NCBI GenBank assembly: GCA_030525875.1
Contig: JAUNDV010000014.1
Coordinates: forward strand, 1-55,067
Direction: 5' to 3'
DNA from: Eubacteriales bacterium
Lineage (GTDB): Bacteria; Bacillota; Clostridia; Lachnospirales; Lachnospiraceae
Length of the DNA stretch: 55,067 bases
In this document: one piece after another, positions 7,486-27,637 of the stretch
Layout: each line of letters begins with the position of its first letter
Position numbering within the stretch: the first letter of the stretch is position 1
Notes under the pieces: model-generated
Told to the model about the DNA's origin: nothing
What the model saw: only the letters and a program-made list of their open reading frames with translations
Database searches by the model: none
Position numbers and translations under genes: made by a program

Positions 7486-8379
7486 ATGGCAGGCTTTGAG
7501 GAAAAAATCAAGTTAAAAACCAAAGAAGCGCTGATAGCTATAGAAGGATATCTTCCTTCAGAGGAAGGCCTACAGCATACAATACTGGAGGCTTGCGCTT
7601 ACTCTGTTGAAAATGGAGGAAAGAGATTAAGACCTATATTTATGCAGGCTGCATATGAGCTTTGTGGTGGTTCAATGGTAAGTGAGGAACTATATCCTTT
7701 CATGGCTGCCATGGAAATGATTCATTCATCATCATTAGTCCATGATGATCTGCCATGTATGGATAATGACAGACTTAGGAGAGGAAAGCCATCAACCTGG
7801 GCAAAATATGGTGAGGATATGGGAACGCTCACGGGTGATGCTCTTATGATTTATGCATTTGAAACAGCAGTAAAATCAATGGCTGATCCTAAAAAGAAAC
7901 TGGAAGCAATAAAAATACTTGCCGAAAAAACTGGTATTTTTGGAATGATAGGCGGACAGGTAGTAGATGTTGAGCTGACAGGAAAAAGACCTTCTGCCGA
8001 GCAGATAGAGTTTATTTATAAACTCAAGACAGGAGCATTGATAGAAGCTTCCTTCATGATAGGTGGAATCATAGCAGGTGCTGATGATGAAACGATAAAC
8101 AAATTAGAAAAAGCAGGCTCATATATAGGTATGGCATTCCAGATTCAGGATGATATTTTGGATGTTATTTCAAGTGAGGATGAGTTAGGAAAGCCAGTTA
8201 ATTCAGATATAAGAAATGAAAAGATTACATGGCTTAGCATTTATGGAATGGAACAGTCACTTAAGGATGTAGAGAGATTTACATCGGATGCTCTTCAATT
8301 ACTGTCAGAGATAAGAAAAAATGATGAAAAATCTTTTTTAGAGGAGCTGTGTCTGTATCTGATCAACCGAAAAAAATGA
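7486..8379 (+). CDS. ispA: Polyprenyl (farnesyl) diphosphate synthase
   Basis: A 297-residue trans-isoprenyl diphosphate synthase that adds IPP to allylic diphosphates to make the C15 precursor for undecaprenyl phosphate and quinones. The first aspartate-rich motif is DDLPCMD (residues 87-93), preceded by GGKRLRP for IPP binding, and the second is FQIQDDILD. The long spacing in the first motif is typical of bacterial FPP synthases. The start at 7486 is chosen over 7468, since GTGAGG in the xseB tail serves as ribosome binding site. Its place between xseB and dxs is the classical Firmicute arrangement. Confidence 0.94.
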   Translation: MAGFEEKIKLKTKEALIAIEGYLPSEEGLQHTILEACAYSVENGGKRLRPIFMQAAYELCGGSMVSEELYPFMAAMEMIHSSSLVHDDLPCMDNDRLRRGKPSTWAKYGEDMGTLTGDALMIYAFETAVKSMADPKKKLEAIKILAEKTGIFGMIGGQVVDVELTGKRPSAEQIEFIYKLKTGALIEASFMIGGIIAGADDETINKLEKAGSYIGMAFQIQDDILDVISSEDELGKPVNSDIRNEKITWLSIYGMEQSLKDVERFTSDALQLLSEIRKNDEKSFLEELCLYLINRKK

Positions 8380-8403
8380 TTAATTGAAAGGCGAAGCTGT
8401 CTG

Positions 8404-25118: not shown

Positions 25119-26219
25119 ATGAAAAAGTTTATATGTATTTTTTATGGGATATTGTTTAGCACATTGGTTGTTATATCTGTATTTGCTATTGGAAAATATG
25201 AGGAAACAGATAGAGGTAGCGTTTATATAACAGATGAAACAAATCAAATTCTGTATTTAATTTTTGATGAAATTTCGGCATATAATGCCGAAGGTATATG
25301 GCACGAAGATAGTAACGGTTGGTGGTTTGAGTATTCTGGAGGAGGATATCCGAGTAATACGTGGGAACAGGTGGAAAACTACTGGTATTATTTCAATGAA
25401 TCTGGATACATGATAACTGGTTGGATTCAAGTAAAAGGGAAATGGTATTTTTGTGAGACATCTAGTCAAGGAGAAGCTCCACATGGAAGTATGGTAACTG
25501 GTTGGAAACAAGTTGATGGAGAATGGTATTTTTTTGAAACAGCAGGAACAGATGGAGTACCGCTAGGATCAATGATAATAGGCTGGTATACCTGGGATAA
25601 AAATGATTATTATTTTAGAGAAAAAAAGACAGGAGCACATCCCATAGGTTCAATGGTTACCGGTACTACTAAAATCGGTGATATTATGTATGAATTTAAA
25701 GATAATGGGATACATTATTCTACTTTTTGTCCGGTAGTGCGCAGAAAACAAGAGAAAGACAATTGGTGTTGGGCTGCATCAGCTGAAATGATAGGAAAAT
25801 ATAGAAATCCAGAAAGTGAAAAAACTCAAGCGGACATAGTGTCTAATTTTTATATATTTGATTTTGATATTGGAGGCTTGACTTTGCAAATGCCGGCGGC
25901 ATTAGAATTTGTTGCTAAAGATAAAATTAAAGATACTAAAATTAATCATGGTCCATTAAATTTTGAAGAAACGAAAGCCGTTATAAAAAATAATGAGCCT
26001 TTTGTTGGTATATTGATGTGGTCAGATTCTGGATTAATTCCTAATGGACATATGGTAGTAATGACGGGATATGCTGAAAAGACAAAGGAGATAAAAATTT
26101 TAGATCCATGGGAAAATACAGAAAGTGTATTTATTCCTTATGATAAAGCAATACTTGAGTATCAATTTTTAACAGGAAGGGGAACTTATACAGATAGTGT
26201 TCTTGCTTATAAGAATTAA
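25119..26219 (+). CDS. Secreted papain-like cysteine protease with cell-wall-binding repeats
   Basis: A 366-residue exported protein. Residues 1-24 are a signal or anchor. About 60-195 hold roughly four to five aromatic choline-binding-type repeats (GWWFEYSGG, WYYFNESGYMITGW, WYFCETSSQG, WYFFETAGT), as in Lachnospiraceae surface proteins. The C-terminal half is a papain-fold (C39/staphopain-like) peptidase with Gln211, Cys217 in NWCWAAS, His311 in GHMVVM and Asp329 in ILDPWE. It begins after a 240-bp AT-rich gap with no clear promoter, and wording and codon use look more AT-rich than the neighbours. The partner gene follows after 25 bp. Substrate unknown. Confidence 0.85.
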   Translation: MKKFICIFYGILFSTLVVISVFAIGKYEETDRGSVYITDETNQILYLIFDEISAYNAEGIWHEDSNGWWFEYSGGGYPSNTWEQVENYWYYFNESGYMITGWIQVKGKWYFCETSSQGEAPHGSMVTGWKQVDGEWYFFETAGTDGVPLGSMIIGWYTWDKNDYYFREKKTGAHPIGSMVTGTTKIGDIMYEFKDNGIHYSTFCPVVRRKQEKDNWCWAASAEMIGKYRNPESEKTQADIVSNFYIFDFDIGGLTLQMPAALEFVAKDKIKDTKINHGPLNFEETKAVIKNNEPFVGILMWSDSGLIPNGHMVVMTGYAEKTKEIKILDPWENTESVFIPYDKAILEYQFLTGRGTYTDSVLAYKN

Positions 26220-26244
26220 TAATCAGTTAGGAGGAAGAGCGACA

Positions 26245-27132
26245 ATGATAAAAATAATTATTGTGTTTACATATATTTTTTTATTATTTAATCCTAGTTT
26301 TAATTCATATGCTTCGGGACATTTAATACCATTGGACGGAAATGAGTATCAGAAAATTACATCTATGAAGGATGAGGTTTTGTATCATATTAATTATGGA
26401 GGAACACGTACAGAGCTTAATCGAGATGTAAGATCAGATGAAGTAGATATGCAAAAAGCATATAAAATCTATTCTAATTCGGATTTATTAGCATCTGAAG
26501 ATATTAAGAAAGCATTGCAGGATAGTCATTATATTTGGCAAATTCCTGTTTATACAGATAATTATACGGTTTTAGTTGATATAACCAAAGTGACTTCAAT
26601 TCCCAATAATATTCCTGAAGATGCAAAAGAAATGCTTAAAGATGATTTGAATAACTGGACTGTAGGAGCTGTTTATGTGTATAAGACAGAAATTGTTGAT
26701 TATAATAATACTGTAATAACATCTATGAATGGTGCAGGATATAATAATGATGAATATACTTATGAGATTGTATCAGGAATTCCAGGAATAAGATATCCTG
26801 TGGCACTTGTGTTCAATTCTGAAGAAAAACCAAAATATGTAATTCCAGCACAAAAAGCCACTGCACATGCATTTAATGGGGAATGGCCTACAGTGGTAAA
26901 AAATAAAGGTGATATAGATAAATATAGTGGTAATGAAGGTACCTTTCCTGTATATAATTATGATGATGTTGTTAAAGCATCAAATTCTTATTATCAAAAT
27001 GGAATGACGGGAGCAGGGATTTTTTATGAAAAAAATATTTCGAATAAAGTGATTTTGTTACTGTCGATATTAGGAATTGTGGGTGTTCTATTATTTAATA
27101 TTGTGAAAAGAAAAACTAATGTAAAAATGTAA
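26245..27132 (+). CDS. Unrecognised exported single-pass membrane protein, partner of the protease
   Basis: A 295-residue protein that I cannot place in a family. It has an N-terminal signal peptide (about 1-24, ending NSYASG), a 235-residue extracellular region rich in Asn, Tyr, Asp and Val, and a C-terminal membrane helix (VILLLSILGIVGVLLFNIV) followed by KRK, so it should be a type I membrane protein. There is no LPXTG motif. The ATG at 26245 follows TAGGAGGA, making an upstream in-frame start at 26197 unlikely. It is 25 bp after the protease gene and is closed by a strong terminator, so the two form an operon. A membrane anchor, substrate or inhibitor for the protease are all possible. 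Confidence 0.75.
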   Translation: MIKIIIVFTYIFLLFNPSFNSYASGHLIPLDGNEYQKITSMKDEVLYHINYGGTRTELNRDVRSDEVDMQKAYKIYSNSDLLASEDIKKALQDSHYIWQIPVYTDNYTVLVDITKVTSIPNNIPEDAKEMLKDDLNNWTVGAVYVYKTEIVDYNNTVITSMNGAGYNNDEYTYEIVSGIPGIRYPVALVFNSEEKPKYVIPAQKATAHAFNGEWPTVVKNKGDIDKYSGNEGTFPVYNYDDVVKASNSYYQNGMTGAGIFYEKNISNKVILLLSILGIVGVLLFNIVKRKTNVKM

Positions 27133-27155: not shown

Positions 27156-27201
27156 AAACCACTTGCTCAGTGATAATTTTCAGAGCAAGTGGTTTGTTTG
27201 T
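27156..27201 (+). terminator. Strong intrinsic terminator of the protease cassette
   Basis: A perfect 13-bp stem (AAACCACTTGCTC at 27156-27168 with GAGCAAGTGGTTT at 27183-27195) is followed by GTTTGTT. It runs directly into the first 38-bp repeat. Confidence 0.85.
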
Positions 27202-27235
27202 TAGGGCAAAGTCCTGTTTTAGAATGAGAGTTTTT
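27198..27235 (+). repeat. 38-bp direct repeat, left copy
   Basis: From TTGTTAGGGCAAAG through TCCTGTTTTAGAATGAGAG to TTTTT. It matches the right copy at 27597-27634 at 37 of 38 positions (T here, C there at the 15th base). The spacing between starts is 399 bp, and the repeats bracket the IS200-like remnant. Confidence 0.92.
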
Positions 27236-27386
27236 GCTAAGAACAAAAACGAACTTTATAAAACAATAAACCACCTGCTATGCAGGCGGAAGAAGAAGCT
27301 TTAGCGTTATAAAAAAAGACCTCCAATGATATAATGAAAACAGGTTCGCCAACCGTTTAAATTAGATCAAAGGAGGAAATGCCCAA

Positions 27387-27476
27387 ATGGACAACAACAG
27401 TTTATCACATACAACATGGAATTGTAAGTATCATATAGTATTTGCACCAAAATATAGAAGAAATGTAAGTCCGTAG
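27387..27476 (+). pseudogene. Truncated IS200 transposase tnpA
   Basis: A 29-codon reading frame starting MDNNSLSHTTWNCKYHIVFA and continuing PKYRR, which is the N-terminus of IS200-type HUH transposases (family length about 150). After PKYRRN it runs into three unrelated codons and a TAG. The catalytic HUH motif and tyrosine are absent, so it cannot be active. The ribosome binding site and start are intact. Confidence 0.85.
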
Positions 27477-27592
27477 GACTTAGCAAGTAGGTGATGTTGC
27501 GGGAGGCGAACCGTTCGATGAGTCTTTAGACTCAAGTGCCGGGAAAGAGCCCTTATAGGGCGAAAAACAAACCACCGGCTTAGCCGGTGGTT
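27467..27592 (+). other. Structured 3' region of the IS remnant (possible RNA)
   Basis: Four hairpins follow in 126 bases: AAGTCC-GTA-GGACTT (27467-27481), GAGTCT-TT-AGACTC (27520-27533), GCCCT-TAT-AGGGC (27549-27561) and the right-end hairpin (27571-27591). Such structured 3' parts belong to the ends of IS200/IS605 elements and, in tnpB-bearing relatives, overlap the omega RNA. No tnpB is present. Read on the minus strand, the last hairpin is followed by TTTGTTTTT and could terminate degV. Confidence 0.55.
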
Positions 27593-27596
27593 ATGA

Positions 27597-27634
27597 TTGT
27601 TAGGGCAAAGCCCTGTTTTAGAATGAGAGTTTTT
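27597..27634 (+). repeat. 38-bp direct repeat, right copy
   Basis: Differs from the left copy (27198-27235) by one base. Here AGGGC-AAA-GCCCT forms a perfect small hairpin. It begins six bases after the right-end hairpin of the IS remnant and ends 3 bp before the degV stop codon. Confidence 0.92.
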
Positions 27635-27637
27635 ATA

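What the first reader, a model, noticed from the sequence alone, without database searches (positions are those of the whole stretch)
25119..27132. Two-gene cassette: wall-binding papain-like protease plus unrecognised type I membrane protein
The protease has a complete Gln211/Cys217/His311/Asp329 set and choline-binding-type repeats, so it should act outside the cell while attached to the wall. The partner has a signal peptide, a 235-residue extracellular region and a C-terminal anchor, and I recognise no family. They are 25 bp apart, share a 13-bp terminator, look more AT-rich than the flanks and sit between galK and an IS remnant, as an acquired unit would. Candidate roles: a protease with its anchored inhibitor or receptor, a system that processes a surface protein, or an anti-competitor factor with immunity.
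Basis: partly seen in the sequence, partly recalled or inferred. Interest (0 to 1): 0.7.

Follow-up and report, generated by a model that had tools for sequence, protein, structure and literature searches.

The report
Wall-binding protease with membrane-anchored partner
A bacterium of the Lachnospiraceae carries a two-gene unit in which a secreted cysteine protease that lacks the usual built-in brake is paired with a membrane-anchored surface protein that probably acts as a separate brake; the pairing recurs in distant relatives, while many others keep the partner gene alone.

Summary
A 366-aa secreted protease (C70/C39-like catalytic domain, choline-binding-type repeats) lies 25 bp upstream of a 295-aa type I membrane protein of no known family. 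They share a terminator and sit between galK and degV; five genus relatives have galK next to degV without them.

The pairing is real but one-sided. Of 44 related protease-domain hits in three genome surveys, 27 lack an N-terminal prodomain; 16 of these have the partner (or a type I protein of the same layout) as next gene. The other 17 carry an in-cis prodomain; 0 have it. That prodomain is staphopain-like (PDB 1x9y, E 1.1e-9). The partner stands alone at 20 of 27 loci.

Best reading: the partner is a membrane-tethered, trans-acting replacement for the missing propeptide (cognate inhibitor or foldase). In one family the downstream gene is clearly a trans copy of the prodomain; one type I partner (G820) resembles it (hhalign P 1.2e-5), though not once aligned with its neighbours. 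For the window's partner family the similarity is only suggestive (P 0.04-0.09). Inhibition is not shown. Orphan partners fit immunity. No structure prediction was available.

The parts
25119..26219 (+). Secreted papain-like cysteine protease, 366 aa, without prodomain
   Evidence: ORF; Pfam C70, C39_2 and choline-binding repeats; no in-cis prodomain hit with A6
25119..25190 (+). N-terminal hydrophobic segment (signal peptide, cleavage site not determined)
   Evidence: sequence; inference
25299..25622 (+). Choline-binding-type cell-wall-binding repeats (about aa 61-168)
   Evidence: Pfam, three stretches; similarity to pneumococcal choline-binding proteins in the PDB; ligand not known here
25746..26120 (+). 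C70/C39-like catalytic domain (aa 210-334), Q211, C217, H311, D329
   Evidence: Pfam; residue check; alignments A4 and A5
26245..27132 (+). Partner: signal peptide, ectodomain, C-terminal membrane anchor, 295 aa; proposed trans-acting inhibitor/propeptide equivalent
   Evidence: no Pfam/NCBIfam family; relatives; hydropathy
26530..26547 (+). Core motif Y-x-W-x-x-P (aa 96-101) that aligns with the 'YxFPV' core of the staphopain-type prodomain
   Evidence: P101 is 90% or more conserved in A2; register in hhalign, not significant on its own
27049..27102 (+). C-terminal transmembrane segment (aa 269-286), short basic tail after it
27156..27195 (+). Shared terminator, 13-bp stem followed by T-rich tail
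27197..27637 (.). IS200-like remnant with repeated ends next to the unit (29-codon TnpA start at 27387-27476)
   Evidence: IS200 naming recalled

Best explanation
The protease is exported and held at the cell wall by its repeats. It is made without the N-terminal propeptide that related secreted cysteine proteases use to stay inactive while folding and leaving the cell. The second gene supplies that function in trans: its ectodomain, tethered to the outer face of the membrane, binds the protease as it emerges (inhibitor, perhaps also foldase) and protects the producer's surface. Away from the membrane, in the wall or on targets, the protease is free to act. Shown: gene order, architectures, recurrence, absence of a prodomain in the paired enzymes, and trans-encoded prodomain homologues beside related proteases. 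Inferred: binding, inhibition, timing, and homology of this partner family to the prodomain.
For: (1) Complementarity: 16 of 27 proteases without an in-cis prodomain have the partner (or a type I protein of the same layout) downstream, against 0 of 17 with one (Fisher 4.9e-5, or 1.9e-4 for the 14 with a membrane anchor). (2) The in-cis domain is the staphopain propeptide type: A6 matches pro-staphopain B (1x9y_A residues 11-161) at E 1.1e-9 (the naming of 1x9y as pro-staphopain B is recalled). (3) In family f11 of the order the downstream gene begins with a copy of that prodomain (hhalign 96%, E 1.7e-9; genome search E 5.7e-9 for the best copy). (4) The type I partner of G820, as a single sequence, resembles the prodomain (hhalign 81%, P 1.2e-5; 0 of 150 column shuffles reach it; A6 HMM E 0.011). 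(5) The class-level survey, with A5 and A8 built without it: besides the window genome, the only two genomes of 148 with a partner hit, G749 and G824, have it directly beside a protease hit. (6) The partner ectodomain diverges faster than the catalytic domain (lower identity in 14 of 15 comparisons of six pairs).
Against: For the window's partner family, similarity to the prodomain is weak: hhalign P 0.092 (22 sequences), 0.038 (25) and 0.026 (29, but that set contains the G820 sequence); 0.043 with A2 against A6 and 0.37 with A2 against A7; forced global alignments fail (P 0.83 and 0.75); no HMMER match. The G820 signal is fragile: aligned with G795 and G824 it falls to P 0.073, in a set of seven divergent partners to 0.56; the larger prodomain HMM gives E 0.097 and single-sequence phmmer 0.3; G820 was one of many partners tried. 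G820 is not linked to the window family by sequence. 20 of 27 partner genes have no protease beside them, and 10 of 17 partner-positive family genomes have no protease hit at E 1e-5, so the partner must have another use there. Co-divergence of the two genes is absent in the six core pairs (Spearman 0.11, 708 of 2000 permutations reach it) and weak in nine (0.41, 53 of 2000). No inhibition data, no structure.
Confidence: 0.5

Rival explanations
1. Antagonism with immunity: the protease attacks surface proteins of competing cells, and the membrane-anchored partner is the immunity protein. Orphan partner genes are immunity genes kept by non-producers against neighbours' proteases. This overlaps with the inhibitor reading and differs in what the protease is for.
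For: Orphan partners at 20 of 27 loci; 10 of 17 partner-positive family genomes have no protease hit at E 1e-5; the same catalytic fold sits at the end of proteins that look RHS-type by eye in G159 and G816, and C39-like domains are described as polymorphic toxin domains (PMC3482391, passages); orphan immunity genes are described in gut bacteria (PMC12247911, title and start of abstract in the listing); insertion between conserved genes.
Against: No delivery module or toxin-system genes were recognised beside the unit; the wall-binding repeats would hold the enzyme on the producer; PADLOC and PHROGs were not searched.
Confidence: 0.25
2. Activator or foldase: the partner is needed to fold or dock the protease at the surface and does not inhibit it.
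For: 16 of 27 prodomain-less proteases come with it; propeptides in general also assist folding (recalled).
Against: 10 of 17 partner-positive family genomes have no protease hit, which a dedicated activator does not explain.
Confidence: 0.12
3. Substrate or receptor: the protease cleaves the partner's ectodomain, as processing or signalling.
For: Both act outside the cell and are encoded together.
Against: The tail after the membrane segment is about 10 residues with no signalling domain; the in-cis prodomain pattern is unexplained; orphans.
Confidence: 0.08
4. Neighbours without functional link, carried together on mobile DNA.
For: Insertion next to an IS remnant; partner often alone.
Against: Same order, strand and short gap in several families and orders; in 26 neighbourhoods with 335 ORFs of 100 aa or more, 23 are type-I-like and 230-345 aa long, 20 of them partners, so 3 others.
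Confidence: 0.05

Closest known systems
SpeB and Spi of Streptococcus pyogenes (C10 protease with adjacent propeptide-analogue inhibitor; described in passages of PMC2873492)
   Same: A secreted cysteine protease and, next to it, a proposed propeptide-like protein encoded separately.
   Different: SpeB keeps its own propeptide (recalled); Spi is not a type I membrane protein (recalled); the protease family differs (C70/C39-like); the window partner's propeptide similarity is not significant.
Staphopain and staphostatin of Staphylococcus aureus (C47/I57)
   Same: Protease with adjacent cognate inhibitor; the propeptide type found in the unpaired relatives here is the staphopain one (1x9y).
   Different: No staphostatin chain appears among PDB matches of the partner profiles; staphostatin controls the zymogen in the cytoplasm (title of reference B35 in PMC2873492); staphopains keep an in-cis propeptide (recalled).
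Bacteroides fragilis bfp/bfi pairs (C10 protease with staphostatin-like, exported or lipid-anchored inhibitors, partly on mobile elements; PMC2873492, passages including the abstract)
   Same: Co-encoded protease and envelope-located putative inhibitor, mobile context.
   Different: Inhibitors of 116-138 aa with lipoprotein or Sec signals, not 295-aa type I membrane proteins; different protease family.
Pneumococcal choline-binding proteins
   Same: Repeat type.
   Different: The repeats carry a protease here; binding to choline is untested.

Membership tests
Papain-like protease of the Pfam C70 / C39_2 type | Profile match above the curated cut-off | tested here: met
   C70 39.5 bits (cut-off 19), C39_2 35.1 bits (cut-off 24)
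Papain-like protease of the Pfam C70 / C39_2 type | Cys, His and Asp catalytic residues | tested here: met
   C217, H311, D329, invariant in A5; Gln211 not invariant
Papain-like protease of the Pfam C70 / C39_2 type | Proteolytic activity | not testable with these tools
   needs an assay
Choline-binding proteins | Repeat profile | tested here: met
   Choline_bind_3 51.8 bits (cut-off 27), Choline_bind_1 32.4 (20.5)
Choline-binding proteins | Binding to choline on the wall | not testable with these tools
   ligand unknown in this organism
Staphopain-type zymogen | N-terminal propeptide in the same chain | tested here: not met
   no A6 hit in the window protease and no A6 match at E 0.001 in its genome
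SpeB/Spi-type protease with propeptide-analogue inhibitor | Genes adjacent, same strand | tested here: met
   recurrent
SpeB/Spi-type protease with propeptide-analogue inhibitor | Partner homologous to a propeptide | tested here: inconclusive
   window family P 0.038-0.092 without the G820 sequence; clear for the f11 downstream genes; for G820 significant as a single sequence only
SpeB/Spi-type protease with propeptide-analogue inhibitor | Partner inhibits the protease | not testable with these tools
   needs an assay
Staphostatin | Sequence similarity to staphostatins | tested here: not met
   no staphostatin chain among the PDB matches up to E 10 with A2 (6 matches) or A8 (2 matches); fold not tested
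IseA/YoeB inhibitor | Sequence similarity of the mature domain | tested here: not met
   E 0.02 with signal peptide disappears with the mature profile
Effector with immunity protein | Orphan immunity genes in non-producers | tested here: met
   20 of 27 loci without protease; 10 of 17 partner-positive genomes without a protease hit
Effector with immunity protein | Toxicity to a target and protection by the partner | not testable with these tools
   needs an assay

The most novel reading that the evidence does not exclude
A new family of membrane-anchored trans-acting propeptides: in several lineages of this bacterial class the inhibitory propeptide of secreted staphopain-like proteases has moved from the enzyme to a separate, surface-tethered, fast-evolving protein. 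Non-producers keep the partner alone as protection, so that propeptide and immunity protein are one and the same thing.
Probability: 0.27. Interest if true: 0.72.

Novelty: new variant of a known kind. Interest (0 to 1): 0.55.

Why it matters
If right, it shows a propeptide switching from cis to trans and becoming a membrane-bound guard, with orphan guards in cells that make no such protease. That gives a simple, testable account of how these bacteria use surface proteases without harming themselves, and names an unannotated protein family with a specific predicted function. Related cis, trans-soluble and trans-anchored versions exist side by side and can be compared directly.

Tried and rejected
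YoeB/IseA as a relative of the partner: E 0.02 in the PDB search, but the match lies on positions 1-84 including the signal peptide and vanishes with the mature profile.

A phage origin of the partner: the only phage record hit (MT836067) is bacterial chromosome over the stretch read, nearly the same as locus L061. No plasmid match for either query and no phage match for the protease domain.

Partner merely rare and unlinked: after the first three relatives lacked the protease, I expected refutation; the wider profile surveys reversed this.

Direct HMM link of the window partner family to the prodomain: none. Controls for the weak hhalign score: with the 29-sequence set 0 of 150 column shuffles reach it, with the 22-sequence set 1 of 150; 12 other profiles (galK, CDF, degV and glnA pieces and the protease's own A4 and A5) and one reversed profile score lower. 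I treat this as suggestive only; the 29-sequence set contains the G820 sequence. Sets of 3, 2 and 7 divergent partners gave P 0.073, 0.071 and 0.56; another set of 28 gave 0.029.

Weak Pfam and NCBIfam matches of partner members each concern one of 21 members and were dismissed. Rfam gave nothing above gathering scores.

PADLOC and PHROGs were not searched. Literature: the listings showed me no description of this pair; only open-access papers are held, I read passages of three papers, and no claim of absence from print is made.

Full report
What is there. Two same-strand genes, 25119-26219 (366 aa) and 26245-27132 (295 aa from its ATG), are separated by 25 bp. The second has a signal peptide, an ectodomain and a C-terminal membrane segment at aa 269-286 followed by about 10 residues. 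It matches nothing in Pfam or NCBIfam up to E 1. A terminator with a 13-bp stem follows. The partner ORF is AT-rich (29.4% GC against a mean of 36.6%, sd 2.4%, for window ORFs); the protease less so (33.4%). Named relatives of the partner are Lachnospiraceae and other Clostridia records.

Acquired unit. The flanking genes are galactokinase and a DegV protein. The galK search found a galK in 18 of 25 genus genomes, the window's included. In five of the loci (L125, L127, L128, L129, L130) degV follows galK after about 30-240 bp with nothing like the unit between them. The other twelve do not show galK followed by degV within the DNA held, so they do not test the site. The partner relative in G005 lies elsewhere in that genome. 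An IS200-like remnant lies between the unit and degV; a copy of its left 257 bp at 97% identity is on contig C18.

Distribution of the partner. In 99 relatives the single protein found 4 genomes including the window's own. A profile of 21 members found 17 of 397 family genomes. In the 148-genome class set a profile of 22 members found three: the window's, G749 and G824. I examined 27 distinct partner loci from the family-level surveys; 7 have a protease hit beside them and 20 do not within the DNA held. Four of the 27 are partial partner genes (L067, L073, L074, L116), some lie near contig ends, and two short fragments of G451 (C107, C83), duplicate loci and the class-level loci were left out of this count. 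Of the 17 partner-positive family genomes, 10 have no protease hit at E 1e-5 anywhere.

Distribution of the protease. The catalytic-domain profile of five paired proteases gave 17 hits in 16 of 397 family genomes. The seven strongest have a partner hit directly downstream, 7 of 7 (Fisher 6.7e-11 for co-occurrence); five of these seven were in the profile, so only G144 and G444 are independent tests. G444's protease carries a stop and its contig ends inside the partner. The next three hits (G439, G151, G327) are followed by type I proteins of 259-304 aa with marginal or no profile match (E 0.005, 78 and 1.4). The nine-member profile gave 19 hits in 16 of 344 order genomes and 12 hits in 10 of 148 class genomes, the window included in each.

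Prodomain and partner exclude each other. I classified the 44 distinct protease hits of the three surveys (33, 11). Seventeen carry an N-terminal domain matching profile A6 in the same ORF (for G249 the match is seen); none of these has a type I partner as next gene. A6 was built from ten of the first 13, while the four in the class set are independent. Twenty-seven lack it. Fourteen of these are followed by a protein of 230-345 aa with signal peptide and C-terminal anchor, and two more (G173 without anchor, G444 truncated) by a partner-profile hit, giving 16 of 27. The eleven others are two C-terminal domains of proteins that look RHS-type by eye (G159, G816; Pfam, run on the G816 piece only, named no RHS family), G135, G065, G644, G390, G405, G557, a case cut short near a contig start (G809), and G482 and G500, where the next gene encodes a signal-peptide protein of 283 or 260 aa without anchor. 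Some rows are near-duplicates (G627/G657, two copies each in G624 and G795), so the Fisher values of 4.9e-5 and 1.9e-4 overstate independence. In the class set alone, 5 of 7 without prodomain have a type I partner and 0 of 4 with it.

What the prodomain is. A6 matches 1x9y_A residues 11-161 at E 1.1e-9; the PDB entry is named 'cysteine proteinase' there, and that it is pro-staphopain B with the propeptide in this part is recalled. Of the eleven genomes with a partner beside a protease in the family and order surveys, ten have no A6 match; G144, which also has an unpaired in-cis protease, has two. The class-level genomes were not searched with A6. In family f11 the gene downstream of the protease begins with a homologous domain (hhalign 96%, E 1.7e-9; genome search), fused to Cu_amine_oxidN1 in the one tested with Pfam. 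So a propeptide-type domain in trans does occur next to these proteases. In G820 the type I partner itself resembles the prodomain as a single sequence (hhalign 81%, P 1.2e-5, 0 of 150 shuffles; A6 HMM E 0.011), but with the larger prodomain HMM E is 0.097, with phmmer 0.3, and in alignments with other partners P is 0.073 to 0.56.

Is the window's partner such a domain? The best alignment puts Y-x-W-x-(I)-P of the partner on Y-x-F-P-V of the prodomain. P is 0.092 with 22 sequences, 0.038 with 25 and 0.026 with 29 (the last includes G820). This beats column shuffles (1 of 150 and 0 of 150 reach it for the 22- and 29-sequence sets) and 12 decoy profiles plus a reversed one, but it is not proof. 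Forced global alignments fail and HMMER finds no match. G824's partner matches the window family (E 1.6e-7) and G795's matches G824's (6e-18), while G820's matches neither, so the chain is not closed by sequence.

Mechanism. The enzyme lacks the usual in-cis brake; a surface-tethered protein encoded next to it takes the place that a propeptide-type protein takes in relatives. I infer a membrane-anchored, trans-acting inhibitor or propeptide equivalent, which could equally serve as immunity for orphan carriers. The partner ectodomain diverges faster than the catalytic domain (14 of 15 comparisons in six pairs, 34 of 36 in nine); agreement of the two genes' distances is absent in six pairs (Spearman 0.11) and weak in nine (0.41, 53 of 2000 permutations). 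Activity, binding and inhibition are untested, and no structure could be predicted.

Known relatives. Adjacent protease-inhibitor genes are known for SpeB/Spi, staphopain/staphostatin and Bacteroides bfp/bfi (PMC2873492, passages including the abstract). None of these, as described there or recalled, is a type I membrane protein next to a prodomain-less C70/C39-like enzyme. C39-like domains occur as toxins in polymorphic systems (PMC3482391, passages). Hence: new variant of a known kind.

Noticed in passing
window 27197-27637; own genome contig C18 121342-126118: IS200-like remnant with repeated ends (27197-27238 and 27597-27637) and only a 29-codon transposase start; a 97% copy of the left 257 bp and short pieces of the right part lie about 4.5 kb apart on C18.
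   Followed up: partly
L066 4169-4753 and 4767-5318; L065 reverse complement 7801-8391: Behind the pair in G187 and G375 lies a third secreted protein of 194-196 aa, alike in the two genomes by eye; the G187 copy has no clear Pfam family. G187 has a fourth small secreted gene.
   Followed up: partly
L145, L147, L148, L157 (family f11 genomes): Downstream of proteases with an in-cis staphopain-type prodomain sits a secreted protein that begins with a second prodomain-like domain; in L145 it ends in a copper-amine-oxidase-N-like domain. G620 has two such genes in a row.
   Followed up: partly
L121 and L192: The same protease domain forms the C-terminus of proteins that look RHS-type by eye in G159 and G816.
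   Followed up: no
L065 8138-8548, L116 6118-6774, L151 1516-1776, L194 410-637: Four protease genes beside a partner or type I gene look shortened or broken while that gene reads through (in G444 the contig ends inside it), as if the partner outlasts the protease.
   Followed up: no
L142 (G065:C241): A protease-domain hit (E 1.6e-22) lies inside a 1921-residue open frame of unknown kind.
   Followed up: no
own genome, places: The repeat part of the protease matches 19 further places on nine contigs (E up to 0.1), so such wall-binding repeats are common in this genome.
   Followed up: no
MT836067.1 (phage collection record): A record filed as bacteriophage is bacterial chromosome over the 9 kb read.
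   Followed up: yes
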